From: Fidelibacterota bacterium
GTDB taxonomy: Bacteria > Fidelibacterota > UBA8477 > JABMPR01
Assembly (NCBI GenBank): GCA_021734255.1
Contig: JAIPJM010000025.1
Span: 1 to 41,565 of the forward strand
Direction of reading: 5' to 3'
Length of the DNA stretch: 41,565 nt
Position numbers and translations under genes: made by a program. This document shows positions 23,023 through 41,252 of this stretch, piece by piece; the first letter of the stretch is position 1, and the number at the start of each line of letters is the position of its first letter. The notes under the pieces were generated by a model that saw only the letters and a program-made list of their open reading frames with translations, ran no database searches and was not told where the DNA came from.

Positions 23023-23284
23023 GCTTCAATCTAATTGCTGGCGAGGTCTAATTGAAGGCTTTCGTGGTCCCATCTCAGTACGACTCGAGATTGTAATACT
23101 GATGATATTTTCAACACCTGTTTCTTGTGTGTTGGATACGTTGTATTTTTCTACACATTTGGATCTGGCGCCTCCCCTTAACCCTTCGATAGGCTTAGAT
23201 CAGATAAGATCAAAACCTGGGCAACAAGTTCATATACTACTGTAATATTTATAGTTACCTCCAGTTTTTATCTAAAAAAGCATG

Positions 23285-23320
23285 TGTGGAGTAATTCACC
23301 ACCTGTTGAATTACTCCACA
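23285..23320. promoter_or_regulatory. Perfect 14-bp inverted repeat, probable enhancer site for the NtrC-family regulator
   Basis: Arms TGTGGAGTAATTCA (23285-23298) and TGAATTACTCCACA (23307-23320) with an 8-base spacer. It lies about 150 bases upstream of the sigma54 element at 23464, the usual place for an upstream activating sequence. Each arm is also an imperfect dyad of its own (GAGTAATTC and its complement, centres 19 bp apart), as if two dimers bound side by side. No T-run follows, so a terminator is less likely. Confidence 0.6.
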
Positions 23321-23370
23321 GTGATTTGAATTGGTTGTCCGCCTGGCTTTCAAGCCATACCGCCCACATG

Positions 23371-23384
23371 TGTTGAATAATTCA
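23371..23384. promoter_or_regulatory. Second copy of the putative activator site
   Basis: TGTTGAATAATTCA matches the left arm of the inverted repeat at 23285 in 12 of 14 positions, and its core GAATAATTC is a perfect odd dyad. It lies 67 bp from the second arm's centre and about 85 bp upstream of the -24 element. Confidence 0.45.
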
Positions 23385-23463
23385 TCAAACATTCATTTTT
23401 AACGGCATTCAGAGCATCACTCTAATTAATTGATATTTATGAATATACAAGGCTGCCTGAGAG

Positions 23464-23479
23464 TGGCACCCCTCTTGAA
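23464..23479 (+). promoter_or_regulatory. Sigma54 (-24/-12) promoter
   Basis: TGGCACCCCTCTTGAA fits the sigma54 consensus TGGCACG-N4-TTGCW in TGGCAC and TTG with exact spacing; only the C of the -12 GC is an A. Transcription would begin near 23490. The first gene starts at 23513 behind a strong AGGAGG. The downstream presence of an NtrC-family activator with intact GAFTGA supports the call. Confidence 0.72.
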
Positions 23480-23512
23480 CTATATAAACCCAGAAAACAA
23501 AGGAGGCCCAAA

Positions 23513-24217
23513 ATGGTCGTTTTATTAGTAATCGGGTTCACATTGATCGCCATCGGAGTTTCATCGTATCTGGGAATGCGTCGTTATGAGGCGCTCAGCG
23601 TTTCACCCATCGCTACCAATTCAGCTTACCAGCTGAAAGTGCAGGATATGAATATCCCTGATGGGATCTATTTCAGTCCAACACATAGTTGGACCCACCT
23701 TGAAACCAGCGGAATGGCAAGGGTCGGGGTGGATGCATTTATCCAAGGTCTTACAGGAGTACTTTCCTCTATCCGAGTACCAGAGAAGGGGTCCGTTCTG
23801 AAACAGGGGGATCCACTATTCAACATTATTCACGAGGGTAAGAGCCTGGAGATCTCTGCACCTATTTCAGGTAAGGTAAAGAATGTAAACATTGATGCAC
23901 TTCAGAATATGCGCATGGTACACAATGATCCCTACGCCTACGGCTGGCTTGTCGAAATGGAGCCGGAGAACTGGGAAGCTGACACCCAACGCCTTTACCT
24001 GGGACAGAAGACCAAAACCTGGTTAAAGACAGAGATCTCACGCATTCGTGATTTTTTTGCTTATTCATTTGCACCACAGGATGCAGAAGCAGGCACCGTC
24101 GTCTTCCAGGAAGGTGGCGATATTGCCGAATGCGCTCTGGCATTCTCTGGTAAGGGTCTATGGGGATCTTTTCAAACCCATATCCTTAACGAAGCCAATA
24201 GTGAATTGACTGCATAA
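23513..24217 (+). CDS. Membrane-anchored H-protein-like (GcvH-fold) protein, no lipoyl lysine
   Basis: A 234-aa protein with an N-terminal membrane helix (about residues 2-20) and a domain like the glycine cleavage H protein (about 48-165). A roughly 65-residue tail follows. H-protein landmarks are present: THSWTHL, ARVGVDAF, APISGKVKNVN and NDPYAYGWLVEM. In real GcvH the lipoylated Lys is seven residues before the [AS]P[VI]SG turn; here that position is Gly109, with a Lys one residue later, so lipoylation is doubtful. The tail shares G.....WL..E..R.RD and QEGG[DE]I with the protein at 26360. It is the first gene of the sigma54 operon and probably a subunit of the FeS/NrfD complex. Its exact function is unknown. 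Confidence 0.82.
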   Translation: MVVLLVIGFTLIAIGVSSYLGMRRYEALSVSPIATNSAYQLKVQDMNIPDGIYFSPTHSWTHLETSGMARVGVDAFIQGLTGVLSSIRVPEKGSVLKQGDPLFNIIHEGKSLEISAPISGKVKNVNIDALQNMRMVHNDPYAYGWLVEMEPENWEADTQRLYLGQKTKTWLKTEISRIRDFFAYSFAPQDAEAGTVVFQEGGDIAECALAFSGKGLWGSFQTHILNEANSELTA

Positions 24218-24256
24218 CATACAATACCGAATAGTACGAATTAAGGATTTCAACTT

Positions 24257-25126
24257 ATGTCTATCGATCGTCGAGAATTTCTAAAAACGCTCGGGGTTGC
24301 CGGAGGAACATTAACAGGTGTGTCCGCTTTCGGTAAATCCAAACAAGAAAGCAATTCTGAAGAGTTTTACGCCATCCTGCACGACATGACCCTCTGTGAA
24401 GGTTGTCAGGGGTGTGAATACGCCTGTGCAGAAGCTAACAACAATCCACCTCCAGCAGATGATGACTACCCTGACTCTGCGATAAGGCGCGAGCTTAAAC
24501 CTGATCAGTTCACGGTTGTTAATGCAGTGGAGACCTCTTATGGGGAGGTCTATACCAAACAGCAGTGCATGCACTGTGCGCAACCTGCTTGTGCATCTGC
24601 ATGCCTGACCCAGGCTATGAAAAAGCATGAAGAGGGTCCCATCACCTGGGAAGAGGGGAAATGCATGGGATGCCGCTATTGTATGGTCTCTTGTCCCTTT
24701 GACATTCCCAAGTTTGAATTTAGCAGTAATAACCCAAAGATCGGGAAGTGCCAGATGTGTTTTGAACGCCTGAAAGAGGGTGATATACCAGCCTGTGTTG
24801 AAAACTGCCCCGCAGAAGGGATGTTCTTCGGTAAACGGAGCGAGGTCATTAAAGAAGCACGTAGACGTATCCTGGATGATCCAGATCTTTATGTAGACCA
24901 TATCTATGGTGAATATGAAGCAGGTGGTACCTCCTGGTTATACCTGTCCCCTGTCCCATTTGAGGAACTAGGGTTCAAGACAGGGCTGGAGGAAAAACCA
25001 TATCCAGAGCTGACAAAGGGTTTCCTGTACAGTGTACCGTCCATCTTTATGCTTTGGCCAGCATTGCTCATGGGCTTAAGAGAAGCAACGCATAAAGATG
25101 AAGAAGAGGAGGTTGAAAATGGCTGA
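24257..25126 (+). CDS. Tat-exported ferredoxin-like subunit with four [4Fe-4S] clusters (HybA/NrfC type)
   Basis: A 289-aa electron-transfer subunit. It begins with a Tat signal (DRREFLKTLGVAGG, residues 4-17). Sixteen cysteines form four cluster sets: C47/50/53/57, C104/107/112/116, C136/139/142/146 and C165/168/180/184, the DmsB/NrfC/HybA pattern. A C-terminal hydrophobic helix (about 256-272) would anchor it to the membrane, as in HybA. It should pass electrons between an unidentified periplasmic partner and the NrfD-type quinone-reactive protein encoded next. The hydrogenase operon at 38.9 kb encodes a parallel protein with the same architecture. Confidence 0.92.
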   Translation: MSIDRREFLKTLGVAGGTLTGVSAFGKSKQESNSEEFYAILHDMTLCEGCQGCEYACAEANNNPPPADDDYPDSAIRRELKPDQFTVVNAVETSYGEVYTKQQCMHCAQPACASACLTQAMKKHEEGPITWEEGKCMGCRYCMVSCPFDIPKFEFSSNNPKIGKCQMCFERLKEGDIPACVENCPAEGMFFGKRSEVIKEARRRILDDPDLYVDHIYGEYEAGGTSWLYLSPVPFEELGFKTGLEEKPYPELTKGFLYSVPSIFMLWPALLMGLREATHKDEEEEVENG

Positions 25127-26348
25127 GCATACGATACCTGATATCTTGGAAGCTCCTCAGAATCGTTGGAAATTCATTCTTTCCGAATTAAAGCCCAAAA
25201 AAAGTATCTGGACCATCTTTAACATGATATCGGTTCCAACTGTAGCCGTGGCAGCCGTCATTATTGTTTATCGCTTCATCTTTGGGCTCGCCGCAGTGTC
25301 GAATGTTACGCAGAGTGTACCCTGGGGCCTCTGGAAGGGATTCAATGTGGTAACCGGGGTTGCCTTTGCCGGGGGTGCCTATGTCCTGACCTTTATGGTC
25401 TACATACTGGGATTGGAAAAATACAAACCACTGGTTCGGGTCACTGTCCTGAACGGTTTCCTGGCATACACTTTTTATGCCTTTGCCCTGATCCTCGATC
25501 TGGGTAAACCATGGAATATCATCAATCCCGTCATTGGTAATTCGTTTGGAACGAGCAGTGTGCTCTTCCTGGTAGCCTGGCATTTTATCCTCTATATCGT
25601 CGCCCAGATGATCGAGTTCTCCCCTGCAGTAGCAGAATGGCTCGGGTCTGAACGCGCCCGAAAAATACTGAAAAGGATGACGGTGGGTGCTGTAATTTTT
25701 GGCATCACGCTATCCACCCTGCACCAATCCGGTCTGGGTGCCCTGTTCCTGATGGCAAAGGGTAAGATTCATCCGCTCTGGTATTCGGAATTCATACCGA
25801 CACTATTTTTTATCTCCAGCATTTTCGCTGGACTGAGTGTGGTAATCTTCCAGGGCAGTATCATCCAGCGAGTATTTGCCTATCAGATGGAGGATGGTAG
25901 TGAAGAACGCCAGAACGTCATGATCCGCGGGCTCGCCAAGGTCTGCGCCATGGCAATGTTCGTGTACCTGTTCCTTAAGGTTGTCGATATGGTACACAAT
26001 CACACACTGGGATACCTGACAACCCCTATGGGAGCCTGGTATTTACTTGAGGTTGTTGGATTCGTGTTCATTCCCATGGTCATGTTCGTTAGGGGTGTCA
26101 GGATCGGAACACCTGGGCTGATCAAGCTTGCCTCATTACTGACCATGATTGGAATCGTTTTGAATCGAATGAACATCTCTGTCATTGCCTATCGGTGGGA
26201 TCAATTACCGCGATACATCCCAAGCTGGATGGAATTTGTCGTAACGATCTCCATCCTCTTTGTCCAGGTCTGGATCTATCGGTGGGTTATCCATCGGATG
26301 CCAGTGCTGCGAACGATGGAATCCATGACACAAAGTAAAAATGCATAA
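25119..26348 (+). CDS. NrfD/HybB-family integral membrane subunit
   Basis: A polytopic (about 10 helices) 409-aa protein of the NrfD/PsrC/HybB family that exchanges electrons with the quinone pool. Conserved stretches such as VPWGLWKGFNVVTGVAFAGG and FALILDLGKPWNIINP parallel those in the HybB-like protein at 37737 (YPWGLWIVYDILVATGLACG, IVIDTGRYWNLIN). ATG 25119 is chosen over the frame's earlier ATG at 25098 because AGGAGG lies 7-8 bases before it; it overlaps the FeS gene by 8 bases. No haem-binding or metal motif is evident. Confidence 0.9.
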   Translation: MAEHTIPDILEAPQNRWKFILSELKPKKSIWTIFNMISVPTVAVAAVIIVYRFIFGLAAVSNVTQSVPWGLWKGFNVVTGVAFAGGAYVLTFMVYILGLEKYKPLVRVTVLNGFLAYTFYAFALILDLGKPWNIINPVIGNSFGTSSVLFLVAWHFILYIVAQMIEFSPAVAEWLGSERARKILKRMTVGAVIFGITLSTLHQSGLGALFLMAKGKIHPLWYSEFIPTLFFISSIFAGLSVVIFQGSIIQRVFAYQMEDGSEERQNVMIRGLAKVCAMAMFVYLFLKVVDMVHNHTLGYLTTPMGAWYLLEVVGFVFIPMVMFVRGVRIGTPGLIKLASLLTMIGIVLNRMNISVIAYRWDQLPRYIPSWMEFVVTISILFVQVWIYRWVIHRMPVLRTMESMTQSKNA

Positions 26349-26359
26349 AGGATAAGAAA

Positions 26360-27055
26360 ATGGATGCCAATTCTTATATCAACATATTCTCAACAAAAGG
26401 AATCGAATACATACTGATCCTGAGTTTTTTCGCTCTGTTTGTTCCGTTTCTTCGCATGCTTAAAGAAATTGAAAGTCCGCTGTTCGCATTGAAGGATGTT
26501 CGCCTTCCCAAAGGCGTATTCTTTGATAAGACCCACACATGGGCATTTCTCAATTCAGCTGGTCAGATCCATGTCGGAATTGATGATTTTTTAGCCGCAG
26601 TTACTGGACCGGTGACGCTTCAAGTTGTTAAATCAGCTGGGGATAATGTTCAACGCGGTGATCATCTGGCCACACTTGTCAACAAGGATCGCCAATTAAA
26701 GATCTATTCACCAGTTAGTGGCAAACTCACTGCCGTGAATAGAAGCCGCTTAAAGAAATTCTCAAAAGTCACGAATAAGGAGTTCGTTGAGAACTGGTTA
26801 TTTGACATCACTCCAAAACGCTGGGACCTGGAACGTGGAATGATGGTGATCGGTGAAAGAGCCAACCAATGGCTACAGGGCGAAACTGCCCGGTTGAGGG
26901 ATGTCCTGGCATTTGCCATGCGGAAATATGAGCTGACGCCTCAGCCCATCCTCCTTCAGGAAGGTGGGGAGATTTCCAACAATGTTTTGGAATCTCTGTC
27001 GCCTGAGATCTGGGAAGAATTTCAAAGTGAGTTCATAGACGCTGCAAAAAGTTAG
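26360..27055 (+). CDS. Second membrane-anchored H-protein-like protein, no lipoyl lysine
   Basis: A 231-aa paralogue of the protein at 23513. It has a membrane helix at about residues 15-33, an H-protein-like domain (about 50-155: THTWAFL, IHVGIDDF, YSPVSGKLTAVN) and a tail with GERANQWLQGETARLRD and LLQEGGEI. The equivalent of the lipoylated Lys is Asp110 (flanked by Lys109 and Arg111), so conventional lipoylation is not expected. It starts 11 bases after the NrfD gene. The two anchored H-like proteins flank the FeS/NrfD pair, which suggests a four-subunit membrane complex. Confidence 0.82.
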   Translation: MDANSYINIFSTKGIEYILILSFFALFVPFLRMLKEIESPLFALKDVRLPKGVFFDKTHTWAFLNSAGQIHVGIDDFLAAVTGPVTLQVVKSAGDNVQRGDHLATLVNKDRQLKIYSPVSGKLTAVNRSRLKKFSKVTNKEFVENWLFDITPKRWDLERGMMVIGERANQWLQGETARLRDVLAFAMRKYELTPQPILLQEGGEISNNVLESLSPEIWEEFQSEFIDAAKS

Positions 27056-27061
27056 TTAAAT

Positions 27062-27105
27062 CATGGGGTGTCAGCGCCTTGATCACGAGGTGCTGACACT
27101 CCATG
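27062..27105 (+). terminator. 18-bp hairpin after the fourth operon gene
   Basis: Arms 27062-27079 and 27088-27105 pair over 18 bp with two G-U pairs and an 8-base loop (27080-27087). No T-run follows on the plus strand, so it may be a partial terminator, a 3' stabiliser or processing site, or a binding site; it separates the four-gene block from the third H-like gene. Confidence 0.55.
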
Positions 27106-27124
27106 GATACAACAGGACACCGGT

Positions 27125-27832
27125 GTGAACATGAGCAATGAAAAATGTATCTGGATGGAAGCGGGTGTTGTTGAATATCAGCTATGCCCTCTCAAAAAAA
27201 ATTGTGACGTTTGTGACTTTCACGAAGAGATGATACGCGGATGCAGATTCCAGGAGCGCTCCGAAGGTCGAATACTACTAACCAGGAAGCCGGATGCAAC
27301 CCTGAGCCAATTTCAACCAGGCTTGCAATATCTCAATGGTCACTTCTGGTATAAGCGAGTTGGGGATAAACGGATACGCATCGGGATCGATAATTTCTTG
27401 TGGCAACTCTTCACATCGGTCCATAAGGTTGTGTTTCCGCAAAATGGTGGTCAAATCGTCGCTAACCAATGCTTTTGCTGGATGTTGCTTTCAGGTGGCA
27501 TGATCTATGTAAAAACCCCCTTTTCCGGAAAAATTCAGAACATCAACCCTAGATTCATGGGGGAGAATCTGTTCGCTTCACAACTCTACCTAGAACCTGA
27601 TAATGAGCTCTGGTTGCTTGAGTTAGAGACCTTTGATGAGAAACTGATCCCCAGCCTAAGCCGAGAATTATATCTCCAGGGAGTCGACCAGGACTGCTCC
27701 AAATTTGGACAAATGTTTCATACCGAAGACGACTCAGAAGGTGATCAGTCCTGTAAAATTTTGACCAATCCAAGAAATGATTTTCGCAAATACCTCCAAA
27801 TTGTCAGCGATGGAAAGTTATTCATCTGTTAG
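27125..27832 (+). CDS. Soluble Cys-rich H-protein-like protein
   Basis: A 235-aa protein without a membrane helix. An N-terminal Cys cluster (C8, C21, C27, C30, C40; segment CPLKKNCDVCDFHEEM) precedes an H-protein-like domain (about 60-150: GHFWYKR, IRIGIDNF, TPFSGKIQNIN). The lipoyl position is Gly124. More Cys residues are at 116, 118, 191, 210 and 235. I recall similar Cys-rich N-termini (C-WMEAGVV) in deltaproteobacterial H-like proteins, from memory only. The C-xx-C arrangement could bind a metal or Fe-S cluster. The GTG start is preferred: GGA lies 7 bases before it; an ATG at 27131 is the alternative. It lies between the complex genes and the two-component genes. Confidence 0.78.
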   Translation: MNMSNEKCIWMEAGVVEYQLCPLKKNCDVCDFHEEMIRGCRFQERSEGRILLTRKPDATLSQFQPGLQYLNGHFWYKRVGDKRIRIGIDNFLWQLFTSVHKVVFPQNGGQIVANQCFCWMLLSGGMIYVKTPFSGKIQNINPRFMGENLFASQLYLEPDNELWLLELETFDEKLIPSLSRELYLQGVDQDCSKFGQMFHTEDDSEGDQSCKILTNPRNDFRKYLQIVSDGKLFIC

Positions 27833-27833
27833 T

Positions 27834-27849
27834 TGGCATGTAATCTGCA
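27834..27849 (+). promoter_or_regulatory. Second sigma54 (-24/-12)-type promoter
   Basis: TGGCATGTAATCTGCA has the GG and GC dinucleotides at the correct 10-base separation and matches the sigma54 consensus TGGCACG-N4-TTGCW at nearly all conserved positions. It starts right at the stop codon of the third H-like gene and lies 55 bases before the kinase start, suggesting autoregulation of the two-component genes. Confidence 0.7.
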
Positions 27850-27903
27850 CAACCGTTAATAGTCATATGGGGAAATCCTCATAAGGGCTTGGAGGGATAC
27901 AGT

Positions 27904-29565
27904 ATGGCTGCGAAGAAAGCAGGGCTTGTGGGGAAGGCAGCTTCTGGTGTTTCATTTAAATCCTTTTTTAGACCACGCTCTTTATATGGGCAGCTCTTTA
28001 TGTTGTTGCTCTCCATGTCTATAATTCTTTTTGTTTTCCTGGCCTGGCTCATATTCTCCATGTCCAACAATTATTTAGAGGACGTCACCACGAGATTTGG
28101 AAAACGTTTAGCAGGCATTCTCAACTTAAATGTCCGATTCAGCATGGTGACCGGAGATCACTCTGAAATGACCCGGGCCATAGAGGAGATGCACGAAGTC
28201 CCTGGTATTCACACCGTAAGGATCTATAACAACCAGGGTGACGTTCGACACAGTACTCCTGGGGCAGAGAAGCCCCTCTTCCTGGACTCGACGTTCACGC
28301 CAGCCACTCACTTCCAGGAGGTAGATTCTGAAATATTAGCATCTGAATCCGCCTGTTTTCATAAACGCTTCGATGACTCTCAACGCTTTATGGTCATCCA
28401 TACTCCCATTCCTGCTACACCGGGCTGCCGTTCCTCCGGGTGTCACGATGATAACAATAAACTCCTGGGCTATACAGAAATTGAATTACCACTCCAGGAA
28501 ATGGACCTGGCTCTGAATCGTATTCTATATCAATATTTTTCACTGGTTATTTTCTTCCTGCTCATTCTCATGGGCACCCTGTTATTTTTTGTTCAGCGCT
28601 ATATCAACAGACCCTTAAAGCAGGTTGTTGATGCAAGTCGAGCGGTAACGGCAGGCAATATGTCTGTGCGAATAGATGTTCACGATGGTGACCTGAATGA
28701 TATTCATCATGTTGGAATGGCCTTCAATAGCATGCTGGAGTCCATACACCATAGTAGTCGTGAACTCCAGAGATGGTCCAATGAATTGGAAAATAAGGTT
28801 CGAACTAAGTCTGAGGATATCGCCCGTACCCAGAATGAGATCTATCAGATAGAGCGCTTAGCTTCCCTTGGACGTTTATCATCATCAGTTGCCCACGAGA
28901 TCAACAACCCTCTGGCCGGCATTCTGACCTATGCAAAATTAGTGACACGTATCCTGAAAAGCCCTGACCTTACTGAGGAGCGCAAGGAGGGCATATTGAG
29001 ACATATGGAGATCATTCAATCTGAAACGGCCAGATGCGGGAATATAGTAAAAGGGCTGCTGAACTTCTCACGGGATCGAAGCCAGAAGTACGAACGGACC
29101 AGCGTGAATCAGGTGTTGGCTGAGTCAGAACAATTGATCCAACACAGTTTTCAAATATCTGACACGAGGTTAGTGACAGATTTTTCCGCCCGGCGAGATG
29201 TGATACTTGCCAATGGGAATCAGATCATTCAGGCGTGTCTGGCAGTGCTCACCAACGCACTGGAGGCCATAGGAGCAGTTCAGGATGGTGTTGTTACCTA
29301 TAGGAGCTATAACCCCGATATGGATCATATCGTGGTACAGATCAAGGACAATGGCATCGGTATTCCGCAGGCAGATATTGACCACATTTTTGAACCATTC
29401 TTCTCAAGTAAGAAAGAGATGTCTGGCATTGGGCTGGGTCTGGCTGTCACCTATGGGATCCTGGAACAACATAAAGCTAAAGTCTCTGTGGAATCAGAAC
29501 CCGGCAAGGGGACCAGCATGAGGTTCATGTTTGACTTAGCAGATGGAGGGAATCAAAATGAGTAA
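27904..29565 (+). CDS. Membrane sensor histidine kinase with haem-like C-X4-C-H motif
   Basis: A 553-aa sensor kinase. Helix 1 lies at about residues 30-52, then a periplasmic domain to about 205 and helix 2 at about 207-230. A HAMP domain (about 230-285), a coiled coil, HisKA (H331 in SSVAHEINNP) and HATPase_c (DNGIGIPQ, GIGLGLAV) follow. The periplasmic end has CRSSGCHDDNNKLLGYTEIEL. Related sensors carry CxxCH haem there; here the spacing is C175-X4-C180-H181, an unusual haem variant or a redox Cys pair. ATG 27904 is chosen because GGAGGG lies 7 bases before it. It should phosphorylate the activator encoded next, whose gene overlaps it by 8 bases. Confidence 0.92.
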   Translation: MAAKKAGLVGKAASGVSFKSFFRPRSLYGQLFMLLLSMSIILFVFLAWLIFSMSNNYLEDVTTRFGKRLAGILNLNVRFSMVTGDHSEMTRAIEEMHEVPGIHTVRIYNNQGDVRHSTPGAEKPLFLDSTFTPATHFQEVDSEILASESACFHKRFDDSQRFMVIHTPIPATPGCRSSGCHDDNNKLLGYTEIELPLQEMDLALNRILYQYFSLVIFFLLILMGTLLFFVQRYINRPLKQVVDASRAVTAGNMSVRIDVHDGDLNDIHHVGMAFNSMLESIHHSSRELQRWSNELENKVRTKSEDIARTQNEIYQIERLASLGRLSSSVAHEINNPLAGILTYAKLVTRILKSPDLTEERKEGILRHMEIIQSETARCGNIVKGLLNFSRDRSQKYERTSVNQVLAESEQLIQHSFQISDTRLVTDFSARRDVILANGNQIIQACLAVLTNALEAIGAVQDGVVTYRSYNPDMDHIVVQIKDNGIGIPQADIDHIFEPFFSSKKEMSGIGLGLAVTYGILEQHKAKVSVESEPGKGTSMRFMFDLADGGNQNE

Positions 29566-30898
29566 AGATATTTCCATTCTAATTGTAGATGACGAGCTTT
29601 CAGTCAGGGACTCCCTTTCCAACTGGTTTCTTGAAGACGGATATACTGTAGAAACTGCAGAAGATGGCAAGTCTGCCCTGAAAAAGCTGGAGTCTTTCAA
29701 TTTTCATATTGTGCTGGTAGATATCAAAATGCCCGGCATGGACGGATTGGAGCTTAATCGAAGAATCAAGTCCATCAACGATGAGATCATTGTCATTGTT
29801 ATGACTGCTTTTGCATCTGTGGACTCAGCTGTTCAGGCCTTGAAAGATGGAGCCTACGACTATGTATGTAAACCCTTCGACCCCGATGCTGTCACTCATA
29901 TCATCAGAAATGCCAGCAAGAGCATTCAGTTAAGTAGTGAAAACCTCTCCCTGCAGGAGAGGATCAAAAGTCTGATCAACATTGATGATATTATTGGAAA
30001 GAGTGACAGCATTCTGGAAGTCCTTGAACAGGTCCGGGTCGTATCTGAATCAGATTCCACAGTAATCATCACAGGCGAAAGCGGGACGGGTAAAGAGCTG
30101 ATCGCCAAGGCAATTCACATGAACTCCACTCGGCGATTTTTCCCCATGGTGACTGTACATTGTGGTGCAATTGCTGAGAACCTCATGGAGAGTGAACTTT
30201 TTGGCCACGAACGTGGCGCATTCACCGGTGCTCAATATGCGCGCAAGGGGAAATTCGAGATGGCGGATGGAGCGACACTGTTCCTGGACGAAATCTCAAC
30301 GATATCCATGAAGATGCAGATCGAGCTTCTCCGGGTCCTTGAGACCAAACACTTCACTCGTGTAGGCGGGAACCGAGAATTTAAATCCGATTTCCGTATC
30401 ATTTGTGCAACCAATCGCGACCTGAAATCCATGGTAGATGCCGGTGAGTTCAGAGAAGATCTATATTACCGGCTGAATGTTTTTGCCATAGACCTTCCCC
30501 CTCTCCGCGAGCGTCCTGAGGATATTCTGCCACTGGCTAAACATTTTATCAAGATCTATTCAGAGCAAATGAATAAAGAAACCTGTGATATTGGGAAACG
30601 AGCGACTAAAGCATTGGAAAATTACCCATTCCCAGGCAATGTCCGGGAATTAGAAAACCTGATTGAACGAGCGATTGTCATAGGAAATGGAAATACGATC
30701 CGACTGAAGGACCTTCCTTTCGATAAGAAGCCTGAAGATCCAACCTGGGAATCTATCGATGAAATGGAACACCACCACATTGAGTCCATTTTGGAAAAAT
30801 ACAGCTGGAACATTTCTAAGTCGGCAAAAGCATTGGGTGTGGATAGAGCAACCTTGTACAGCAAGATAAAGAAATACAATATTCCCAAGCATCAGTGA
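29558..30898 (+). CDS. NtrC-family sigma54-dependent response regulator
   Basis: A 446-aa transcription activator. The receiver domain (about residues 1-120) has the phospho-acceptor Asp in [12 protein letters not shown]. The AAA+ domain (about 135-370) has Walker A GESGTGKE, the sigma54-contact loop GAFTGA intact, Walker B LFLDEIS and NVRELEN. The C-terminal Fis-type helix-turn-helix ([20 protein letters not shown]) binds DNA. With two sigma54-type promoters in the same locus, it is the likely activator of the H-like/FeS/NrfD operon and of its own genes. ATG 29558 follows GGAGGG by 8 bases and overlaps the kinase stop. Confidence 0.95.
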
Positions 30899-31452
30899 AC
30901 AGCCCCAAGGCTCAGTCCATGCCCTCGATCAAGATCGTTCCGATCCAATTTGCACAGGTGGAGATCCTTGAAGATCTACTTCCGGAGCTGTCAACTCATT
31001 TCAGAACCGAAGTCATACTGGGGAGCCTCCCTCGATTTGATCTGTCGCCTTATTTCAATCCTGTGCGCTCACAGTATGATGCCAATGAGATCATCGTAGA
31101 GCTTAACAAGCTGGTCGTTGGCGAAATGAAGATCGTGGGGGTCACTGATCTTGATCTGTTCATTCCCGTGTTGAAATATATTTTTGGCCAGGCCTACTTG
31201 GGTGGAAACGCTGCATTGATCTCGGGATATCGGCTATACAACAGCAGGTATGGACTGCCGGAAGATCTCAATATTTTTGCGGATCGTCTGAAAAAATGTA
31301 TGATCCATGAACTGGGGCATGCGTTTGGATTGATCCATTGTCAGCAGCCAGGATGTGTCATGCTGCCAACGACTTATGTTGAAGAGATGGACCAGAAGCT
31401 GACCACCATGTGCTCGAGTTGTTTTGCCCAATTGCGCGAGAATCAACGTTGA
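30895..31452 (+). CDS. Archaemetzincin-like zinc metalloprotease
   Basis: A 185-aa protein with the extended zinc motif HELGHAFGLIHC (HExxHxxGxxH) followed by QQPGCVM, then CSSC near the C-terminus. This is the archaemetzincin pattern, with a catalytic zinc and a second Cys4 zinc. It is common in archaea and patchy in bacteria, and no substrate is known. The GTG start overlaps the response regulator stop (GTGA), so translation is coupled; ATG 30919 is an alternative. No signal peptide is seen, so it should be cytoplasmic. It is convergent with the epimerase-like gene 19 bases away. Confidence 0.85.
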   Translation: MNSPKAQSMPSIKIVPIQFAQVEILEDLLPELSTHFRTEVILGSLPRFDLSPYFNPVRSQYDANEIIVELNKLVVGEMKIVGVTDLDLFIPVLKYIFGQAYLGGNAALISGYRLYNSRYGLPEDLNIFADRLKKCMIHELGHAFGLIHCQQPGCVMLPTTYVEEMDQKLTTMCSSCFAQLRENQR

Positions 31453-32989: not shown

Positions 32990-33012
32990 ACTCCCCCAGG
33001 TGGTTAAGCTCG

Positions 33013-35094: not shown

Positions 35095-35460
35095 ATGCAT
35101 CGATCTTTATACTTAATCCTAATTATTCCACTCGCTCTGTGCTTCACTGGCTGCGGTGGCGCGGAAAAACTTGACCTGAAAGCTGTGAATGCAGATCTGA
35201 CCAATGGACAAGTCGTATATGAAGATGATTGCGTACTGTGCCATCAGGGTGCGATCGAAGGTGCCCATCGCCTGGAGCAGACCGAACGCTGGCAAGAAAG
35301 TGCTGACAAAGGATTTGAGCAGCTGGTCCGTCACACTGTCAATGGTTATCAGGGCAAATATGGCGAGTTGCCGGTCATGGGGATGTGTCCCCAGTGCTCC
35401 GAACAGGATATTCGGGATGCCATTGCTTATATGTTGGTCACAGCTGGTGTGATGAATTAA
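35095..35460 (+). CDS. Cytochrome c5-like lipoprotein
   Basis: A 121-aa periplasmic cytochrome c. The signal peptide ends in a lipobox-like FTGCGG, so it may be lipid anchored at about Cys20. Haem attaches at CVLCH (residues 44-48), and Met in LPVMGM (about 101-103) is a candidate axial ligand. A second pair CPQC (about 104-107) matches the disulfide typical of cytochrome c5. It lies between the epimerase genes and the hydrogenase operon but on the opposite strand to the latter; it may be an electron partner of the membrane complexes nearby, but this is only inferred from proximity. Confidence 0.85.
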   Translation: MHRSLYLILIIPLALCFTGCGGAEKLDLKAVNADLTNGQVVYEDDCVLCHQGAIEGAHRLEQTERWQESADKGFEQLVRHTVNGYQGKYGELPVMGMCPQCSEQDIRDAIAYMLVTAGVMN

Positions 35461-35536: not shown

Positions 35537-36034
35537 TTAAACAGCCGCGGTCTTCTGGATGACTTTCACTTTCCAGTCTTTCAGTTGCTGCATTGCATAT
35601 TCCAAAAGTTTTGGAATGGACTTTTCCACAGTTTTGCTAAGCTCAACTTTCAGATCCAGACTCTCTGGTTGGACACCGAAAAGTATGATCTCCTTAGGGA
35701 TTGCATCTGTCAACTTAGCCATTGCCAGTAGATCACTGAGCCCCAGATGATGAACAGAGGTCTTGGTGTTTAAGCGGGCCAGGATATCTTCATTTTCCAC
35801 CCTGCCGACACTACCAGGGGGTTGGTCAAATGTCATAGCGTCCAGCATGATCATGTGTGATTCCGGACGAAAGAACGGTAACAGGTCAAGTCCGCTTGTA
35901 CCGCCATCAACCAGTTCAATCTCAGGTTCGAACCGGTAATTCTCCTGCAGAGCACGGAGGGCGTGGATCCCCACGCCCTCGTCTTGCATTAACAGATTAC
36001 CAAGTCCGAGTACTACGACATCAGGGGAGGACAT
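35537..36034 (-). CDS. hybD: Hydrogenase maturation protease (HybD/HyaD-like)
   Basis: A nickel-dependent endopeptidase that cleaves the C-terminal tail of the large subunit after the metal centre is inserted. It opens VVVLGLGNLLMQDEGVGIHA, with the family-conserved Glu and Asp metal ligands; LVDGGTSGLDLLPF and HHLGLSDLL follow. From ATG 36034 it is 165 aa, overlapping the large subunit by 14 bases; a longer frame starts at 36082 within the large subunit gene. It is the last gene of the operon, ahead of the terminator. Confidence 0.9.
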   Translation of the reverse strand: MSSPDVVVLGLGNLLMQDEGVGIHALRALQENYRFEPEIELVDGGTSGLDLLPFFRPESHMIMLDAMTFDQPPGSVGRVENEDILARLNTKTSVHHLGLSDLLAMAKLTDAIPKEIILFGVQPESLDLKVELSKTVEKSIPKLLEYAMQQLKDWKVKVIQKTAAV

Positions 36035-37724
36035 TGACTTTAACAATGTCTTTGCGGTCGTTGTCATGGAGATGGATGGCACAGGCCAGGCACGGATCGA
36101 AGGAATGGATCGTCCGCAACACCTCTAAGGGCTTTTGATCATCCGCAACGGGATTGCCCACCAGGGATGCCTCGTAGGGACCGAGCTTGTCATCACCGTT
36201 TCTCGGGCCAGCATTCCAGGTTGAAGGAACCACACACTGGTAGTTCTTGATCTTGCCATTATTGATAACCACCCAGTGACTCAAGGTTCCGCGGGGCGCT
36301 TCGTGGAAGCCAAAGCCCATCTGCTCGCCCTTGGGAAATGTGGGTGGATTGAAGGTTGCCATATCGCCACCGGCAATATTATTGATAAGGAGGTTATAGT
36401 TCTTCTTTAACTCCTCATACAGGACGGCTGTACGAATACAGCGTGCAGCATGGCGACCAATGGTTGAGTGCAGAGCACCGATGCCTACCTTTGTTCCAGC
36501 CAGTGCGGATACACGTTCCAGAGCAAGATTGGCAACTTTTTGAGTGGTTTTATGACCGGCGGCATACATAGCCAGAACATTGGCTAGAGGGCCAACCTGT
36601 GCAGGTTCACCATTGAAAGTAGGTGATTTCACCCAACTGTAAGCACCATCATCATCCCATTCACTGTACTTGGGAACGGTTTCCTCTTTGTAGGGATGAC
36701 GTGTCCAATCTCCATCATACCAGGAGTGCTTGATACTCTCCTTGACACCCTTTTCAAACATAGCATCATTAAAAGAGTTGATCGGTTTGAATGCGCCAAC
36801 ATCACCATTTGGTATATACCCACCGGGCATACCAAACTCGGTTCCCTTCGTATCGGTTGGAAAATCAGGAACGGATAGATAATTCATCACACCAGATCCG
36901 TATCCGGTCCAATCCGCATAAAAAGCACCGACGGCTGTAATATCGACGAAGTAAGCCTGGTAGATGAACTGCTCCAGTTTATCCATAAGCGTCTTGATCG
37001 CTGCGAGACGTTCCATATTCAACGCATCTTCACTGTCAGGATTGATCGGATTGGAAACACCACCAACAGCCAGATTCTGGATGTGAGGTGTCTTGGAGCC
37101 GAGGATCGTTGTGATCTGGTTTGCCTGACGCTGAACTTCGAATGCCTGCAGATAATGGGCGGCTGCCAGCAGATTGACCTCTGGTGACAATTTCATAGCC
37201 GGATGGCCCCAATATCCATTGGCAAAAATACCCAGCTGGCCAGAGCCAACGAAGGTTTTCAGTTTGTCCTGAACCGCCTTGAATTCCTGGGCACCGTTAT
37301 GAGGCCAGTCCGAGAGACTCTGAGCTAGCTTTGATGCTGCCTTAGGATCAGCTTTCAAGGCTGAAACAACGTCAACCCAATCCAACGCTGACAAGTGATA
37401 GAAGTGTACGATATGATCATGAATACCATGAGCAGCAATGATCATATTTCGTATATATTGGGCATTTAGCGGTACCTCCATCGCCAGAGCATTTTCAACA
37501 GCTCTCACAGAGGTCATGGCATGTACCGTGGTACATACTCCACAAATGCGCTGGGTGAAGATCCAGGCATCACGTGGATCACGACCTTCAAGGATGGTCT
37601 CGATTCCGCGCCACATCTGTCCCGATGACCATGCGTTAGTAACCTTACCGTTATTCACCTCCGCATCAATGCGCAGGTGGCCTTCGATTCTGGTCACGGG
37701 ATCTACTACAATTCGTTTAGCCAT
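36021..37724 (-). CDS. hybC: [NiFe] hydrogenase large subunit (HybC-type)
   Basis: The 567-aa catalytic subunit that splits H2 at a NiFe(CN)2CO centre. The Ni/Fe ligands are seen in the L1 motif RICGVCTTVH (C61, C64) and the L2 motif DPCLACAIH (C545, C548, H551). The maturation protease should remove the 16 residues after H551. The N-terminus is MAKRIVVDPVTRIEGHLRI. The genes read HybO-A-B-C-D, the layout of membrane-bound respiratory uptake hydrogenases (group 1 type). The start has GGAGG just upstream. Confidence 0.95.
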   Translation of the reverse strand: MAKRIVVDPVTRIEGHLRIDAEVNNGKVTNAWSSGQMWRGIETILEGRDPRDAWIFTQRICGVCTTVHAMTSVRAVENALAMEVPLNAQYIRNMIIAAHGIHDHIVHFYHLSALDWVDVVSALKADPKAASKLAQSLSDWPHNGAQEFKAVQDKLKTFVGSGQLGIFANGYWGHPAMKLSPEVNLLAAAHYLQAFEVQRQANQITTILGSKTPHIQNLAVGGVSNPINPDSEDALNMERLAAIKTLMDKLEQFIYQAYFVDITAVGAFYADWTGYGSGVMNYLSVPDFPTDTKGTEFGMPGGYIPNGDVGAFKPINSFNDAMFEKGVKESIKHSWYDGDWTRHPYKEETVPKYSEWDDDGAYSWVKSPTFNGEPAQVGPLANVLAMYAAGHKTTQKVANLALERVSALAGTKVGIGALHSTIGRHAARCIRTAVLYEELKKNYNLLINNIAGGDMATFNPPTFPKGEQMGFGFHEAPRGTLSHWVVINNGKIKNYQCVVPSTWNAGPRNGDDKLGPYEASLVGNPVADDQKPLEVLRTIHSFDPCLACAIHLHDNDRKDIVKVNVLP

Positions 37725-37736
37725 AAGAAATCCTCC

Positions 37737-38876
37737 CTAGGCGTCTTTTAGTACCGGTAAAACCGGGAAGCGTTTAACAAAGAATAAGTAAGCCACCAGC
37801 TCGATGGAGATGATTCCGACCGTGATCAGAATCTCAGCAACAGCTGGGAAGTAGACAAAGCCACCACCTGGGTCAAAGCCTACCAGGAAGGCATCAAATC
37901 GATAAACGGCGCCTGCCAGCAGGATTGAAATGGAAGCGTAGAATAGCTGTGTCAGTTTTTCCCGGTTCGCCTTGCTCAGCAGGACGATGAGGGGATAGAT
38001 AAATAATAGATTCTCGATAACGAACATGATGCCCTTGGCATTGAAGGCCAGATCACTGAGACCATTATTCGCAAGCAGGGTCACCCAGCGAAGTACCAGG
38101 AAGGCACCCAGAAGATATGGGATCGTCCACGCCAATTTGCTGAGCATCTTCTGCTCATACGGCCGCTTCAGTACTGTGGCTGAAAAAATGGCTTCGAAGA
38201 CCACAACGGCAAATCCCATGGAAATGGCCGAAAGCAGAAAGAGTGCAGGCAGCCAGTCCGTTTGCCAGAGTGGTGAGAGTTTATTCCCCGCCACGATCAT
38301 CAAGCCACCGAGTGAACTCTGATGAAGTGTTGGGAAGAGCAATCCGAAGGCCACCACAACGAACATGCTACGGTGAACGGCTCGGCGTAGTTTGGTCTTA
38401 TTCCACTTCTCAAGCATGACCGGAGAGAGTTCGATCCACAGAACTACGATATAACTTGAGATGGAAATGGCCACTTCCACCATCCATGAGCTTCCGATAT
38501 TGCTCGTCCCGGGTAGAAAGATATTGATAAGGTTCCAGTATCTTCCCGTATCGATGACAATAGCGAAAGCAGCGAGCGTGTAACCGAAGACACTGGCCAA
38601 TAAGGCCGGTCGGATCAATGGATGATACTGGCCACGATTAAAGGCGTAGACCAGGATGGCCATGGCATAACCACCGCAAGCCAGACCTGTGGCGACCAGG
38701 ATGTCATAAACGATCCAGAGACCCCAGGGATACCCATCGTTCAGGTTTGTGACAGCACCGATACCGAATAAGAACCGGTACCCCATCAGAGCAATTCCGA
38801 CCACTGCCAGCGTGAACAGAATGGAGAATGGTTTGGTCCAAAGTTTACCACCTAGTGGAGCATAGGTCTCACTCAT
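37737..38876 (-). CDS. hybB: Hydrogenase integral membrane subunit (HybB/NrfD family)
   Basis: A 379-aa polytopic (about 10 helices) subunit that links the hydrogenase to the quinone pool. Conserved: YPWGLWIVYDILVATGLACG and IVIDTGRYWNLIN. ATG 38876 is favoured over the frame's start at 38942 since GGAGG precedes it and it overlaps the FeS gene by 8 bases. It is paralogous to the membrane protein at 25119. HybB-type subunits lack haem and use menaquinone in the enterobacterial system. Confidence 0.92.
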   Translation of the reverse strand: MSETYAPLGGKLWTKPFSILFTLAVVGIALMGYRFLFGIGAVTNLNDGYPWGLWIVYDILVATGLACGGYAMAILVYAFNRGQYHPLIRPALLASVFGYTLAAFAIVIDTGRYWNLINIFLPGTSNIGSSWMVEVAISISSYIVVLWIELSPVMLEKWNKTKLRRAVHRSMFVVVAFGLLFPTLHQSSLGGLMIVAGNKLSPLWQTDWLPALFLLSAISMGFAVVVFEAIFSATVLKRPYEQKMLSKLAWTIPYLLGAFLVLRWVTLLANNGLSDLAFNAKGIMFVIENLLFIYPLIVLLSKANREKLTQLFYASISILLAGAVYRFDAFLVGFDPGGGFVYFPAVAEILITVGIISIELVAYLFFVKRFPVLPVLKDA

Positions 38877-39921
38877 GGTCCACCTCCCCTTCGCTTTCCA
38901 ATGATTTGCTGCTTCGATGGGCGGCGAATACCAGACCACCAAGCAGGGCTATCGGTGCGATCATACCTTTATAGAGTGTATGAGATATATTCTCAGAGCG
39001 TGCAGCAGCAGATGAAAAACCTGGCTTGGGTAGCCCAAGTTTTTCGAATGGCACTGCGGAAAGCATCAGGTATTGAGCCCCACCGCTCTCACTTTGACCA
39101 TAGATATAATCAATATATTTTGCTACAGGTCTACGCTGGATAAAGGAGTTATCCTGTGGTTCGTCCTGTATAAAGGATCCATCCTTGTCACTGGTGCGTC
39201 TGAAAACACCTTTTAACGAAGAAACTGGATAAGGATATTCCGCTCCTTCCTGTAAGGCAATTCGACGCTTGGCTTCTTCCAGGATGTCCGTGAACTTCCC
39301 GTGGATAGTCGCACCCGTCGGGCAAAATTCTGCACAACCGGGGATTCCACCTTCCGCCTGGACATGTGAACACATCTCACATTTGTGGACCAGTGGAATG
39401 GCTTTATCATATTCGAATTTCGGAATGTTGTAGGGACAGGCGATCTGGCAATAGCGACAGCCACAACATCTATCCTTATCCCATGCAACGATACCGGTCT
39501 TTTCATCTTTTGTGAATGCCGTTGTAGGACAGGCAGAGGCACAGTCCGGGTCGGCACAGTGCATACAGGCGCGGCGGACAAATGAAAAACCATCCACCTC
39601 CTGATTACGGGTGTTTGCCTTGCCATTACGGTAGACCTGGATCTTATTCAGGGTCTTTGCGTTTAGATCCTTGGGGGCATCCCAAACACCATCGACACCA
39701 AGGTCTTTCTCATAAGAATCATGATCCATGGGCATGCTATTGTTACGCTTACATGCCACCTCACATGATTTACAGCCAATGCAGAGTGTTGCGTCGTATA
39801 GTACGCCCTCGGCATCGGGTGGTAAGGCTGTTGCAGTGCGAGCCTGGACGGTGCTAATACTCGACATCGTCACGGCGCCTGCAGACAGGATTTTAAAAAA
39901 CTCTCTTCTATCAACTTGCAT
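38869..39921 (-). CDS. hybA: Hydrogenase electron-transfer subunit with four [4Fe-4S] clusters (HybA type)
   Basis: A 350-aa Tat-exported FeS protein. Signal: DRREFFKILSAGAV (residues 4-17). Cluster cysteines: C47/50/53/57, C119/122/127/131, C152/155/158/162 and C181/184/196/200. A C-terminal helix (about 319-335) anchors it. It carries electrons from the small subunit to HybB. It is encoded 11 bases after the small subunit gene. The protein at 24257 is its counterpart in the sigma54 operon. Confidence 0.93.
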   Translation of the reverse strand: MQVDRREFFKILSAGAVTMSSISTVQARTATALPPDAEGVLYDATLCIGCKSCEVACKRNNSMPMDHDSYEKDLGVDGVWDAPKDLNAKTLNKIQVYRNGKANTRNQEVDGFSFVRRACMHCADPDCASACPTTAFTKDEKTGIVAWDKDRCCGCRYCQIACPYNIPKFEYDKAIPLVHKCEMCSHVQAEGGIPGCAEFCPTGATIHGKFTDILEEAKRRIALQEGAEYPYPVSSLKGVFRRTSDKDGSFIQDEPQDNSFIQRRPVAKYIDYIYGQSESGGAQYLMLSAVPFEKLGLPKPGFSSAAARSENISHTLYKGMIAPIALLGGLVFAAHRSSKSLESEGEVDHE

Positions 39922-39932
39922 AATGACGCCTC

Positions 39933-41078
39933 TTAGGATTCAGTTGATGAGGATTGATCGGCTTCCTTGGTTTTCTTGGCAGTAGCCGCACTTGCCCCGA
40001 TAGCAACACCGGCAGCAGCACCTACCACCGCAGCAGCACCAATTCCCAGACCTTTTCCTTGAGTTGGTTCGGTTTCAGGATAGAGCGATGGTGGCCGCAC
40101 TGTGTACACCTCAGCCTGTTCGTGGATGGCCTTGGTAAAACCAACACCCTCCTCTGAGCAACCGAAACAAGGATGCCCTGTACCTACTGGCCAGGCACCT
40201 GAACCAACGTCACCAAAAAGGATGGAAGGACAGTTGGCATACGTTTCTGGTCCTTTACAACCAAGTTTGTACAGGCACCAGCCCTCTCGATGACCGGCAT
40301 CTCCAAACTGCTGTGCAAAGCGACCAGCATCAAAATGCGGACGGCGTTCGCAATTCTCATGAATGAGTTTACCATATGCGAACATGGGACGATTCTTTTT
40401 GTCCAACTGTGGCAATTTTCCTAAAGTCAGATAGTAAAGAACCGTTGAAAGAAGGTTATATGGACTTGCAGGACAACCGGGAAGGTTGATCACCGGTTTA
40501 TCGCTGAATACTTCATGGATACCCTGAGCACCGGTTGGGTTGGGAGCGGAAGATTGCACGCCACCCCAACTTGCACATGAGCCAATCGCTACAACCGCAG
40601 CGGCTTTCGGACCGATATCTGCCATAATCTCCATGGCGGTACGGCCACCGATCTTGCAGAAAATCCCATTCTCTGCAGTTGGTATGGATCCTTCTACCAC
40701 GAGAATGAATTTTCCAGCATTGGCTTCCACGGAAGCATGCAGTGCTTCTTCCACCTGATGACCTGCAGCAGCACTCAGCGTTTCAGAGTAATCAAGAGAG
40801 ATTACATCCAGAACGAGACTCTCAACGGTTGGATGTGTTGCCCGTAACAGTGATTCAGTACATCCCGTACATTCCTGGAAATGCAGCCAGATCACTGGTG
40901 GACGTTTCGGATTTGCTACCGTTTCGGCGACTTTCGCAACCATTCCTGCAGGCAGCCCCATGGCAGCTGTAATAGCGGTACAGAATTTAAGGAAACTTCT
41001 GCGTGTTACGCCCTGTGCGGCCAACTCTTCAGAGTAAGGCAGGTTCAGGGTCTCATCGGTTTTCAATTGTGTTCCCAT
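39933..41078 (-). CDS. hybO: [NiFe] hydrogenase small subunit (HybO-type)
   Basis: A 381-aa small subunit holding the FeS wire. It has a Tat motif TRRSFLKF (about residues 25-32), the proximal cluster in ECTGCTES (C70, C73), GSCASWGG, NLPGCPASPYN, and the distal and medial cluster set in HENCERR, GWCLYKLGCKGP, NCP and GHPCFGC. The proximal motif is CTGC rather than CTCC, so the oxygen-tolerant six-Cys proximal cluster is absent. A Gly/Ala-rich C-terminal helix (about residues 340-365) anchors it. ATG 41078 is chosen because GGAAAGGG precedes it; a TTG at 41105 is less likely. Confidence 0.95.
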   Translation of the reverse strand: MGTQLKTDETLNLPYSEELAAQGVTRRSFLKFCTAITAAMGLPAGMVAKVAETVANPKRPPVIWLHFQECTGCTESLLRATHPTVESLVLDVISLDYSETLSAAAGHQVEEALHASVEANAGKFILVVEGSIPTAENGIFCKIGGRTAMEIMADIGPKAAAVVAIGSCASWGGVQSSAPNPTGAQGIHEVFSDKPVINLPGCPASPYNLLSTVLYYLTLGKLPQLDKKNRPMFAYGKLIHENCERRPHFDAGRFAQQFGDAGHREGWCLYKLGCKGPETYANCPSILFGDVGSGAWPVGTGHPCFGCSEEGVGFTKAIHEQAEVYTVRPPSLYPETEPTQGKGLGIGAAAVVGAAAGVAIGASAATAKKTKEADQSSSTES

Positions 41079-41252
41079 GCAGTTACCCTTTCCGTATGAG
41101 TTCAAGATCTAAGGTTTTATTAAATGTCGGCTTCTCAGCCTCTTCATTCTTACAGGTATAGTAAAAAGCATGTCAGGATCACAGTACACCGTAACCCCTA
41201 ATGTGACAGAATTTGTCTTTAATACTTCATATTAATGAATAATTGCGAATTG

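What the first reader, a model, noticed from the sequence alone, without database searches (positions are those of the whole stretch)
23464..31452. Sigma54-controlled H-protein-like/FeS/NrfD membrane complex with its own heme-like sensor and activator
Three GcvH-fold proteins are built around a Tat-exported 4x[4Fe-4S] protein and an NrfD quinone-reactive subunit, all on one strand, followed by a kinase, an NtrC-type activator and an archaemetzincin. No catalytic subunit (no molybdopterin enzyme, no multihaem reductase, no hydrogenase) is encoded here, so the H-like proteins themselves may form the interface to the partner. The components are known families. The combination and the lack of a catalytic subunit are what make it look undescribed; I cannot search the literature.
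Basis: partly seen in the sequence, partly recalled or inferred. Interest (0 to 1): 0.85.

Follow-up and report, generated by a model that had tools for sequence, protein, structure and literature searches.

The report
Degenerate H-protein electron-transfer cassette
A marine bacterium carries a conserved eight-gene set that joins an Hmc-like membrane electron-transfer unit to three lipoate-free relatives of the glycine-cleavage H-protein, a haem-sensing switch and a rare protease; the H-protein, switch and protease core recurs in several bacterial phyla and I found no description of it.

Summary
Window 23513-31452 encodes H1, FeS, NrfD, H2, H3, histidine kinase, NtrC-type regulator and archaemetzincin (M54) on one strand, behind a conserved sigma-54 element. 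All eight genes keep their order in 11 of 12 same-genus loci; the twelfth ends at a contig edge. A similar set occurs in Bacteroidota, Ignavibacteria, Gemmatimonadota, Zixibacteria and KSB1. A core without FeS/NrfD (kinase, regulator, M54, H) occurs mainly in Desulfobacterota.

The interpretation needs changing. A Hyb hydrogenase lies 4 kb downstream but is not an obligate partner. FeS/NrfD are closest to HmcB/HmcC, and Hmc (recalled) has no enzyme subunit either. The likely partner is an HmcA-related multihaem cytochrome: inside the cassette in two genomes, divergent from it in two, on another contig here, and next to FeS-NrfD in 8 of 10 phylum genomes that have it without the cassette. All three H-proteins lack the lipoyl lysine.

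Best reading: an inducible Hmc-type link between multihaem cytochromes and quinone, with lipoate-free H-domains on the cytoplasmic side. The H/two-component/M54 core seems undescribed: ten literature searches showed no paper on it. What the H-proteins do is inferred. Novelty: new variant of a known kind.

The parts
23100..23387 (.). Operator region: dyads TGTTGA-N5-TCAACA at 23100, 23304, 23371 (1 mismatch each) and 23285 (2 mismatches)
   Evidence: 4 of the 8 dyads at <=2 mismatches in the 41.6 kb window lie here; dyad within 450 bp before 46 of 68 first H genes vs 1.7% of shuffles
23464..23479 (+). sigma-54 element TGGCACCCCTCTTGAA (-12 part TTGAA instead of TTGCA)
   Evidence: TGGCA[CT]N5TTGA in all 13 genus regions aligned, about 47-50 bp before H1
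23513..24217 (+). H1: N-terminal TM helix, H-protein domain, helical tail with GG motif; no lipoyl Lys
24257..25126 (+). HmcB-like 16-Cys FeS protein with Tat motif and C-terminal hydrophobic segment
   Evidence: (NF045715 318 bits, cut-off 420)
25098..26348 (+). HmcC-like NrfD membrane subunit
   Evidence: (NF045714 358 bits, cut-off 550)
26360..27055 (+). H2: H-like protein with N-terminal TM helix; no lipoyl Lys
27062..27105 (+). Inverted repeat in the H2-H3 gap (18-base arms with mismatches, 8-base loop)
   Evidence: read from the sequence printed; not tested against chance; shorter arms in some relatives, none in others
27125..27832 (+). H3: H-like protein without TM, N-terminal CIWM...C...C..C motif; no lipoyl Lys
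27833..27849 (+). Candidate second sigma-54 element (TTGGCATGTAATCTGCA) before HK-RR-M54
   Evidence: highest score in the window; pattern found in 6 of 12 same-genus gaps and 0 of 4 other gaps examined
27889..29565 (+). Histidine kinase with CX4CH sensor motif, HAMP, HisKA, HATPase
29543..30898 (+). NtrC-type sigma-54 activator (receiver, AAA+ with GAFTGA, Fis HTH)
30895..31452 (+). Archaemetzincin (M54) with intact zinc-site motif
35095..35460 (+). Small cytochrome c (context, not assigned to the cassette)
35537..41105 (-). Hyb operon HybO-HybA-HybB-HybC-HybD, convergent neighbour (context)
   Evidence: HybC and HybO by family match; HybA, HybB, HybD named from their sequence; adjacency in the genus

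Best explanation
The cassette makes an inducible Hmc-type membrane electron-transfer unit. Electrons pass between a periplasmic HmcA-related multihaem cytochrome, the Tat-exported HmcB-like FeS protein, the HmcC-like NrfD protein and the quinone pool. In this genome the cytochrome is on another contig. H1 and H2 (TM-anchored, H domain predicted cytoplasmic) and H3 (no TM, Cys-rich) are lipoate-free H-domains that act as docking or regulatory subunits on the cytoplasmic side, not as lipoyl carriers. A haem-c kinase senses redox or ligand state and phosphorylates the NtrC-type regulator, which binds TGTTGA-N5-TCAACA dyads and switches on the sigma-54 promoter of the H genes. M54 and H3 belong to the regulatory core. 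Shown: genes, order, promoter and dyad conservation, loss of the lysine, H fold of H1 and H3, haem motifs, the neighbourhood of the cytochrome. Inferred: the electron path, the side of the H domains, the kinase-regulator-operator logic, and any role of M54.
For: FeS and NrfD score best against HmcB and HmcC; NrfD is 42% identical to the NrfD of a locus with a 16-haem cytochrome (L050) and 28% to HybB of its own window. A 13-haem cytochrome sits inside the cassette in G222 and G224. In G001 and G008 a 12-haem relative is divergent from H1 across a region with five dyads and a sigma-54 element facing it. 15 of 19 genus genomes have a relative; both genomes without the cassette lack it. Of 10 cassette-free phylum genomes with a relative, 8 have it directly beside a Tat-type FeS-NrfD pair (order FeS-NrfD-cytochrome), one beside an NrfD end at a contig edge, one at a contig end. 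Sigma-54 score >=22 before 50 of 68 first H genes vs 0.6% of shuffles; dyads before 46 of 68 vs 1.7%. Lipoyl column K in 2 of 129 H-like sequences, 5 of 5 LbpA-type controls.
Against: G012 and G017 have the cassette (G017 as fragments) but no 12-haem relative was found at E 1e-20. FeS-NrfD-cytochrome sets occur without H-proteins in cassette-free relatives, so the H-proteins are not needed for the electron path. 11 relatives of FeS have no twin-arginine motif, so their FeS side is unclear. The HK-RR-M54-H core occurs without FeS/NrfD. The cytochrome operon of this genome has only a sigma-54-like element (-12 part TTGT) and no dyad within 3 mismatches. The NCBIfam HmcA match of the cytochrome covers about 95 residues. 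The window promoter scores 21.5, below the 22 used for the count.
Confidence: 0.57

Rival explanations
1. The set is mainly a redox-signalling device. FeS-NrfD and the H-proteins report quinone or cytochrome redox state to the kinase and regulator, and H3 with M54 is the feedback arm; electron transfer is secondary.
For: The commonest company of H in 58 named loci is the regulator (48), kinase (44) and M54 (43); FeS+NrfD only 15. H genes are themselves the sigma-54/dyad-controlled genes. FeS-NrfD-cytochrome sets exist without H-proteins, so H is tied to the regulators more than to the electron path.
Against: FeS keeps all 16 Cys and NrfD is full length, as expected of a working respiratory unit; multihaem cytochromes join the cassette or its operator region. 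The invariant Cys set of H3 is partly built into the search pattern, and the H3 of G222 and G224 lack it.
Confidence: 0.22
2. The cassette is an accessory arm of the neighbouring Hyb [NiFe] hydrogenase.
For: Convergent Hyb operon 4 kb away; HybC or HybD beside the cassette in 9 of 12 genus loci, with G009 and G016 added by the coordinates.
Against: Hyb has its own HybA and HybB. G001 (95% complete) has the cassette and no HybC match at E 1e-50; nor do G005, G008 and G017, which are less complete; G002 has a 52%-identical HybC and no cassette. No HybC profile match beside the type A loci of other phyla in up to 10 kb of flank.
Confidence: 0.09
3. The H-proteins carry a bound group (lipoate or sulfur) as GcvH or LbpA do.
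For: H-protein fold; one genome of the genus, G010, also holds an LbpA/Hdr-like cluster (L038).
Against: Attachment lysine absent in 127 of 129 sequences, mostly Gly; present in 5 of 5 LbpA-type sequences of the same alignment.
Confidence: 0.05

Closest known systems
Hmc complex of sulfate reducers (HmcABCDEF; subunit list recalled)
   Same: FeS and NrfD best match HmcB and HmcC; related multihaem cytochrome in the cassette of two relatives; no catalytic subunit (recalled)
   Different: Below NCBIfam equivalog cut-offs; multihaem cytochrome not in the window; HmcD/E/F not seen; three H-like proteins, haem-sensor kinase, NtrC regulator and M54 added
Hydrogenase-2 (HybOABCD)
   Same: Same FeS and NrfD subunit types; a Hyb operon lies 4 kb away
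   Different: No hydrogenase subunit in the cassette; NrfD 28% identical to the window's HybB; cassette occurs without Hyb
GcvH and LbpA lipoyl proteins
   Same: H-protein fold
   Different: No lipoyl lysine; TM anchor or Cys motif; extra helical C-terminal tail; sigma-54 operon
FeS-NrfD-multihaem operons of cassette-free Neomarinimicrobiota (G020-G022, G078-G080, G122, G220)
   Same: Tat-type FeS, NrfD and related 12/13-haem cytochromes
   Different: No H-protein, M54 or cassette-type kinase found in the stretches fetched
c-haem sensor domains (PF21563, PDB 3b42; recalled as Geobacter chemoreceptor sensors)
   Same: Sensor domain before HAMP; weak sequence hits (E 0.04)
   Different: On a histidine kinase; CX4CH is the constant motif; the hits are not significant

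Membership tests
Hmc complex | HmcB/HmcC equivalog scores | tested here: not met
   318 of 420 and 358 of 550 bits, though best family hits
Hmc complex | HmcA-type multihaem cytochrome in the same operon | tested here: not met
   Not in the window operon; in the cassette only in G222/G224; relative at G000:C16
Hmc complex | HmcD, HmcE, HmcF subunits | tested here: inconclusive
   No ORF of 90 aa or more besides the eight genes reads in the operon as another subunit (inspection); smaller ORFs and the rest of the genome were not searched
GcvH | Lipoyl-attachment lysine | tested here: not met
GcvH | H-protein fold | tested here: met
   H1 E 1.7e-11, H3 E 2.0e-7 against solved H-proteins; H2 by Pfam only
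GcvH | NCBIfam gcvH cut-off | tested here: not met
   61, 33.5 and 21.6 bits of 115.85
Hydrogenase-2 accessory | Constant company of Hyb | tested here: not met
   G001 has the cassette without a HybC match
NtrC-type sigma-54 activator | Receiver + AAA+ with GAFTGA + Fis HTH | tested here: met
Archaemetzincin M54 | HExxHxxGxxHCx4CxM and CxxC | tested here: met
   54 of 61 related proteins match the stricter motif and 59 of 61 HExxHxxGxxH; Pfam over its cut-off, NCBIfam 138.7 of 145 bits
Haem-c sensor kinase | Covalent haem actually bound | not testable with these tools
   Only the CX4CH motif is seen

The most novel reading that the evidence does not exclude
A previously unrecognised redox-control module spans several bacterial phyla. 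Lipoate-free H-proteins, many with a conserved four-cysteine site, are the dedicated sigma-54 output of a kinase-NtrC pair and, together with an archaemetzincin, plug into different respiratory machines: Hmc-type FeS/NrfD with multihaem cytochromes, NuoFG-like modules, HdrA, or formate dehydrogenase with Hmc. The H-fold is reused there as a redox-responsive adaptor instead of a lipoyl carrier.
Probability: 0.35. Interest if true: 0.78.

Novelty: new variant of a known kind. Interest (0 to 1): 0.62.

Why it matters
It gives a context to a family of H-like proteins that match glycine cleavage H-protein models but lack the lipoate site, and to bacterial archaemetzincins, on whose role my searches found no paper. 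It names a promoter, an operator and a candidate cytochrome partner that can be tested, and shows Hmc-like electron transfer units in uncultured marine bacteria that are not known here as sulfate reducers.

Tried and rejected
Considered and rejected: Hyb accessory arm, lipoate or sulfur carrier, a window-only oddity. An octahaem cytochrome divergent from H1 in G012 was tried as a general partner and dropped: matches in 6 of 19 genus genomes, none in this one. A wider regulon sought by dyad in the own genome was too loose (301 sites at up to 2 mismatches vs 85 for the reversed pattern); one close pair on contig C58 had no sigma-54 element of the expected kind. A sigma-54 pattern gave 15 genome sites against 1 for the reversed pattern, not followed. 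A plasmid-collection protein search gave one distant match. Rfam and tRNA scans were empty. One search stopped on a motif error; one search is the rerun. Sigma-54 weights were my own, from a recalled consensus.

Rows set aside: one search used 48 of the 58 named loci (L087, L091, L096, L101 left out as copies of genomes already counted; L047, L075, L081, L088, L090, L099 for lack of upstream sequence) plus 20 others; 13 of the 68 genes are from the window's own genus and are not independent. One search aligned only kinases scoring over 400 bits against the cassette profile, so Desulfobacterota kinases are not in it, and 4 of its 31 are duplicates. One masked sequence (L058) of alignment A3 was dropped for the model alignment A4. 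In one search the L050 Hmc locus is among the 15 FeS+NrfD loci.

Full report
Observation. The window is contig C46 of a 2.87 Mb, 91% complete genome. The phylum is Candidatus Neomarinimicrobiota by inference: the same-genus contig G003:C5 has the same length, 161,473 bases, as JAIPJF010000005.1, so titled. Eight collinear genes run from 23513 to 31452: H1, FeS, NrfD, H2, H3, histidine kinase, NtrC-type regulator and M54, with gaps of -29 to +69 bp. Pfam supports each name except that H3 is below the GCV_H cut-off. NCBIfam ranks HmcB and HmcC first for FeS and NrfD, below equivalog cut-offs. A Hyb hydrogenase operon lies convergent at 35537-41105, outside the interval given.

Conservation in the genus. 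H2 has a strong match in 16 of 18 same-genus genomes (G005 and G017 as contig-edge pieces) and none beyond GcvH level in G002 and G015. M54 is found in the same 16 and is missing from the same two. Of 12 same-genus loci annotated, 11 carry all eight genes in order; L033 ends at a contig edge inside the kinase. HybC or HybD is seen beside the cassette in 9 of the 12; coordinates add G009 and G016. HybC was found in 14 of 19 genus genomes at E 1e-50, G002's being only 52% identical; not in G001, G005, G008, G015, G017.

Conservation outside. In the phylum, 28 of 245 genomes have M54 above the cut-off, 11 of them outside the genus. In 7 of the 11 (G028, G076, G151, G152, G153, G222, G224) M54 stands beside the cassette-type regulator; G076, G153, G222 and G224 have the whole cassette; G151 and G152 have M54-H3 without FeS/NrfD in view; in G028 the H1-FeS-NrfD-H3 set is about 11 kb away. 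In 4 (G025, G055, G149, G240) no such genes were seen in the stretch held. A named-genome scan with the H3 alignment gave 58 loci. Type A, H1-FeS-NrfD-H3-HK-RR-M54, occurs in nine loci outside the phylum, titled Ignavibacteria, Bacteroidetes, Gemmatimonadota, Zixibacteria, KSB1 or plain bacterium (L057 and L075 cut by contig ends). Type B, HK-RR-M54-H without FeS/NrfD, occurs mostly under Deltaproteobacteria and related titles, and in G152, where NuoF- and NuoG-like genes precede it. Within 6 kb of an H gene: regulator in 48 of 58 loci, kinase 44, M54 43, FeS+NrfD 15. Ten loci had no regulator near; L057, L070, L075, L097, L099 are short or cut, L059, L062, L063, L065, L068 are not. Type B neighbours include HdrA-like proteins (L049, L061), NuoEF-like proteins (L086), and in L050 an FdhA-like protein near H genes and a 16-haem cytochrome-FeS-NrfD set (the L049, L086 and FdhA names are partly read from the sequence).

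Control region. TGGCA[CT]N5TTGA is present before H1 in all 13 genus upstream regions of the alignment, while the rest has diverged (my regular expression did not list L031, which the alignment shows). In the window alone the site is not unusual by score. Over 68 first H genes a sigma-54 score of 22 or more is found in 50 vs 0.6% of mononucleotide shuffles (56 vs 1.0% at 21.5, the window's own score); a dyad with at most 2 mismatches lies within 450 bp in 46 of 68 vs 1.7%. Misses include L046, L050 and L072 for the promoter and many Desulfobacterota loci for the dyad. A second sigma-54-like element precedes the kinase in the window and in 6 of 12 same-genus gaps.

H-proteins. In an alignment of 129 H-like sequences with the genome's own GcvH, the lipoyl column is Gly in 76, Asp in 20 and Lys in 2 (both L076); five LbpA-type sequences from L036-L038 all keep Lys. 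63 of 129 have the CIWM...C...C..C motif and 46 have a predicted N-terminal TM helix, with no overlap; positive charges place the domain inside in 42 vs 3. The motif was part of the search pattern, so its frequency is biased, and H3 of G222/G224 lacks it. H1 model: mean pLDDT 86.5, best hits E. coli and Thermus H-proteins, E about 2e-11. H3 model: 80.6, best hits H-proteins at E 2e-7, Cys-rich N-terminus at low confidence. In Pfam and NCBIfam the three window H-proteins and one type B relative match only GcvH-type models, besides weak barrel-domain hits.

Sensor. CX4CH is present in all 31 kinases aligned (27 distinct; only kinases close to the cassette type were aligned); CXXCH is also present in most but absent in the window copy, L028/L101, L032, L091/L123 and L127. 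In type B Desulfobacterota loci no CXXCH was counted in the kinase. The best solved structure is 3b42, E 0.036, in line with a weak PF21563 hit.

Partner. A 13-haem cytochrome lies between H2 and H3 in G224 and G222, with a partial HmcA match. This genome has a 12-haem relative at C16:17753-18766, in a run of 4-, 12- and 11-haem genes. 15 of 19 genus genomes have a relative; G002, G012, G015 and G017 do not. In G001 and G008 the cytochrome genes face away from H1 and share its operator region. In 12 genus genomes including this one the operon of the closest relative is on a contig other than the cassette's H2 and has a TGGCA[CT]N5TTGT element of uncertain meaning; no dyad within 2 mismatches lies before it. 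Ten further phylum genomes have a relative and no M54 above the cut-off. In eight of them (G020, G021, G022, G078, G079, G080, G122, G220) the cytochrome directly follows a FeS-NrfD pair; in G024 it follows an NrfD end at the contig edge; in G057 it is at a contig end (in G079 the FeS gene is read in two pieces). In G020-G022 the order is 4-haem, FeS, NrfD, 13-haem, 12-haem; 4-haem and 12-haem genes of like size stand without FeS/NrfD on C16 of this genome. This fits the cassette FeS/NrfD serving that cytochrome, but also shows that such sets exist without H-proteins.

Unexplained. FeS has a twin-arginine motif in the window genus, L091/L123, L127 and L050, a near-motif in L121, and none in 11 relatives (L024, L045, L046, L052, L055, L057, L075, L082, L083, L084, L099), although the C-terminal segment and the NrfD charge pattern are alike. 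Either a partner carries it across or the FeS side differs.

Literature. Ten full-text searches. No paper for GcvH-like + NrfD + hydrogenase, archaemetzincin + glycine cleavage, archaemetzincin + sigma-54, Marinimicrobia + NrfD. The six looser searches listed 10 of 10, 20 of 109, 15 of 35, 1 of 1, 10 of 31 and 10 of 115 papers; no listed title or abstract start describes this set. [quoted passage not shown] Subscription papers are mostly not held, so absence is not proven.

Noticed in passing
L036, L037, L038 (G029, G023, G010): A separate cluster with LbpA-type lipoyl proteins and EtfAB-like and Hdr-like genes (names read from sequence), resembling the sulfur-oxidation Hdr system; one of the three genomes is of the window's genus.
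   Followed up: partly
L024, L045, L046, L052, L055, L057, L075, L082, L083, L084, L099: HmcB-like FeS proteins without a twin-arginine motif although the C-terminal segment and NrfD charge pattern are like the exported form.
   Followed up: partly
L163 (G024:C92), about 177-272: A 50-aa reading frame resembling residues 4-35 of H2 (56% identity) between an NrfD end and a 13-haem cytochrome: the H2 anchor helix may exist as a small protein of its own.
   Followed up: partly
27062-27105: Strong hairpin in the H2-H3 gap, not seen in all relatives; possibly an attenuator or repeat.
   Followed up: partly
27833-27849: Best-scoring sigma-54-like site of the window, before the kinase gene, seen in half of the same-genus gaps.
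   Followed up: partly
L048, L054, L059: Four tandem H-like genes, some with zinc-ribbon-like N-termini, next to a sulfide-quinone-reductase-like gene (name read from sequence).
   Followed up: no
L141 (G000:C16:8001-28000) and L142 (G003:C34:14001-33000): Large multihaem cytochrome clusters, up to 20 CXXCH per protein.
   Followed up: no
31472-34638, minus strand: Two paralogous SDR-like proteins (name read from sequence) lie between the cassette and Hyb; relatives are in the same place in the genus loci that reach that far, except L032.
   Followed up: no
G000:C58:52528-52571: Two operator-like dyads 27 bp apart near a TetR-like gene, without a sigma-54 element of the expected kind.
   Followed up: partly
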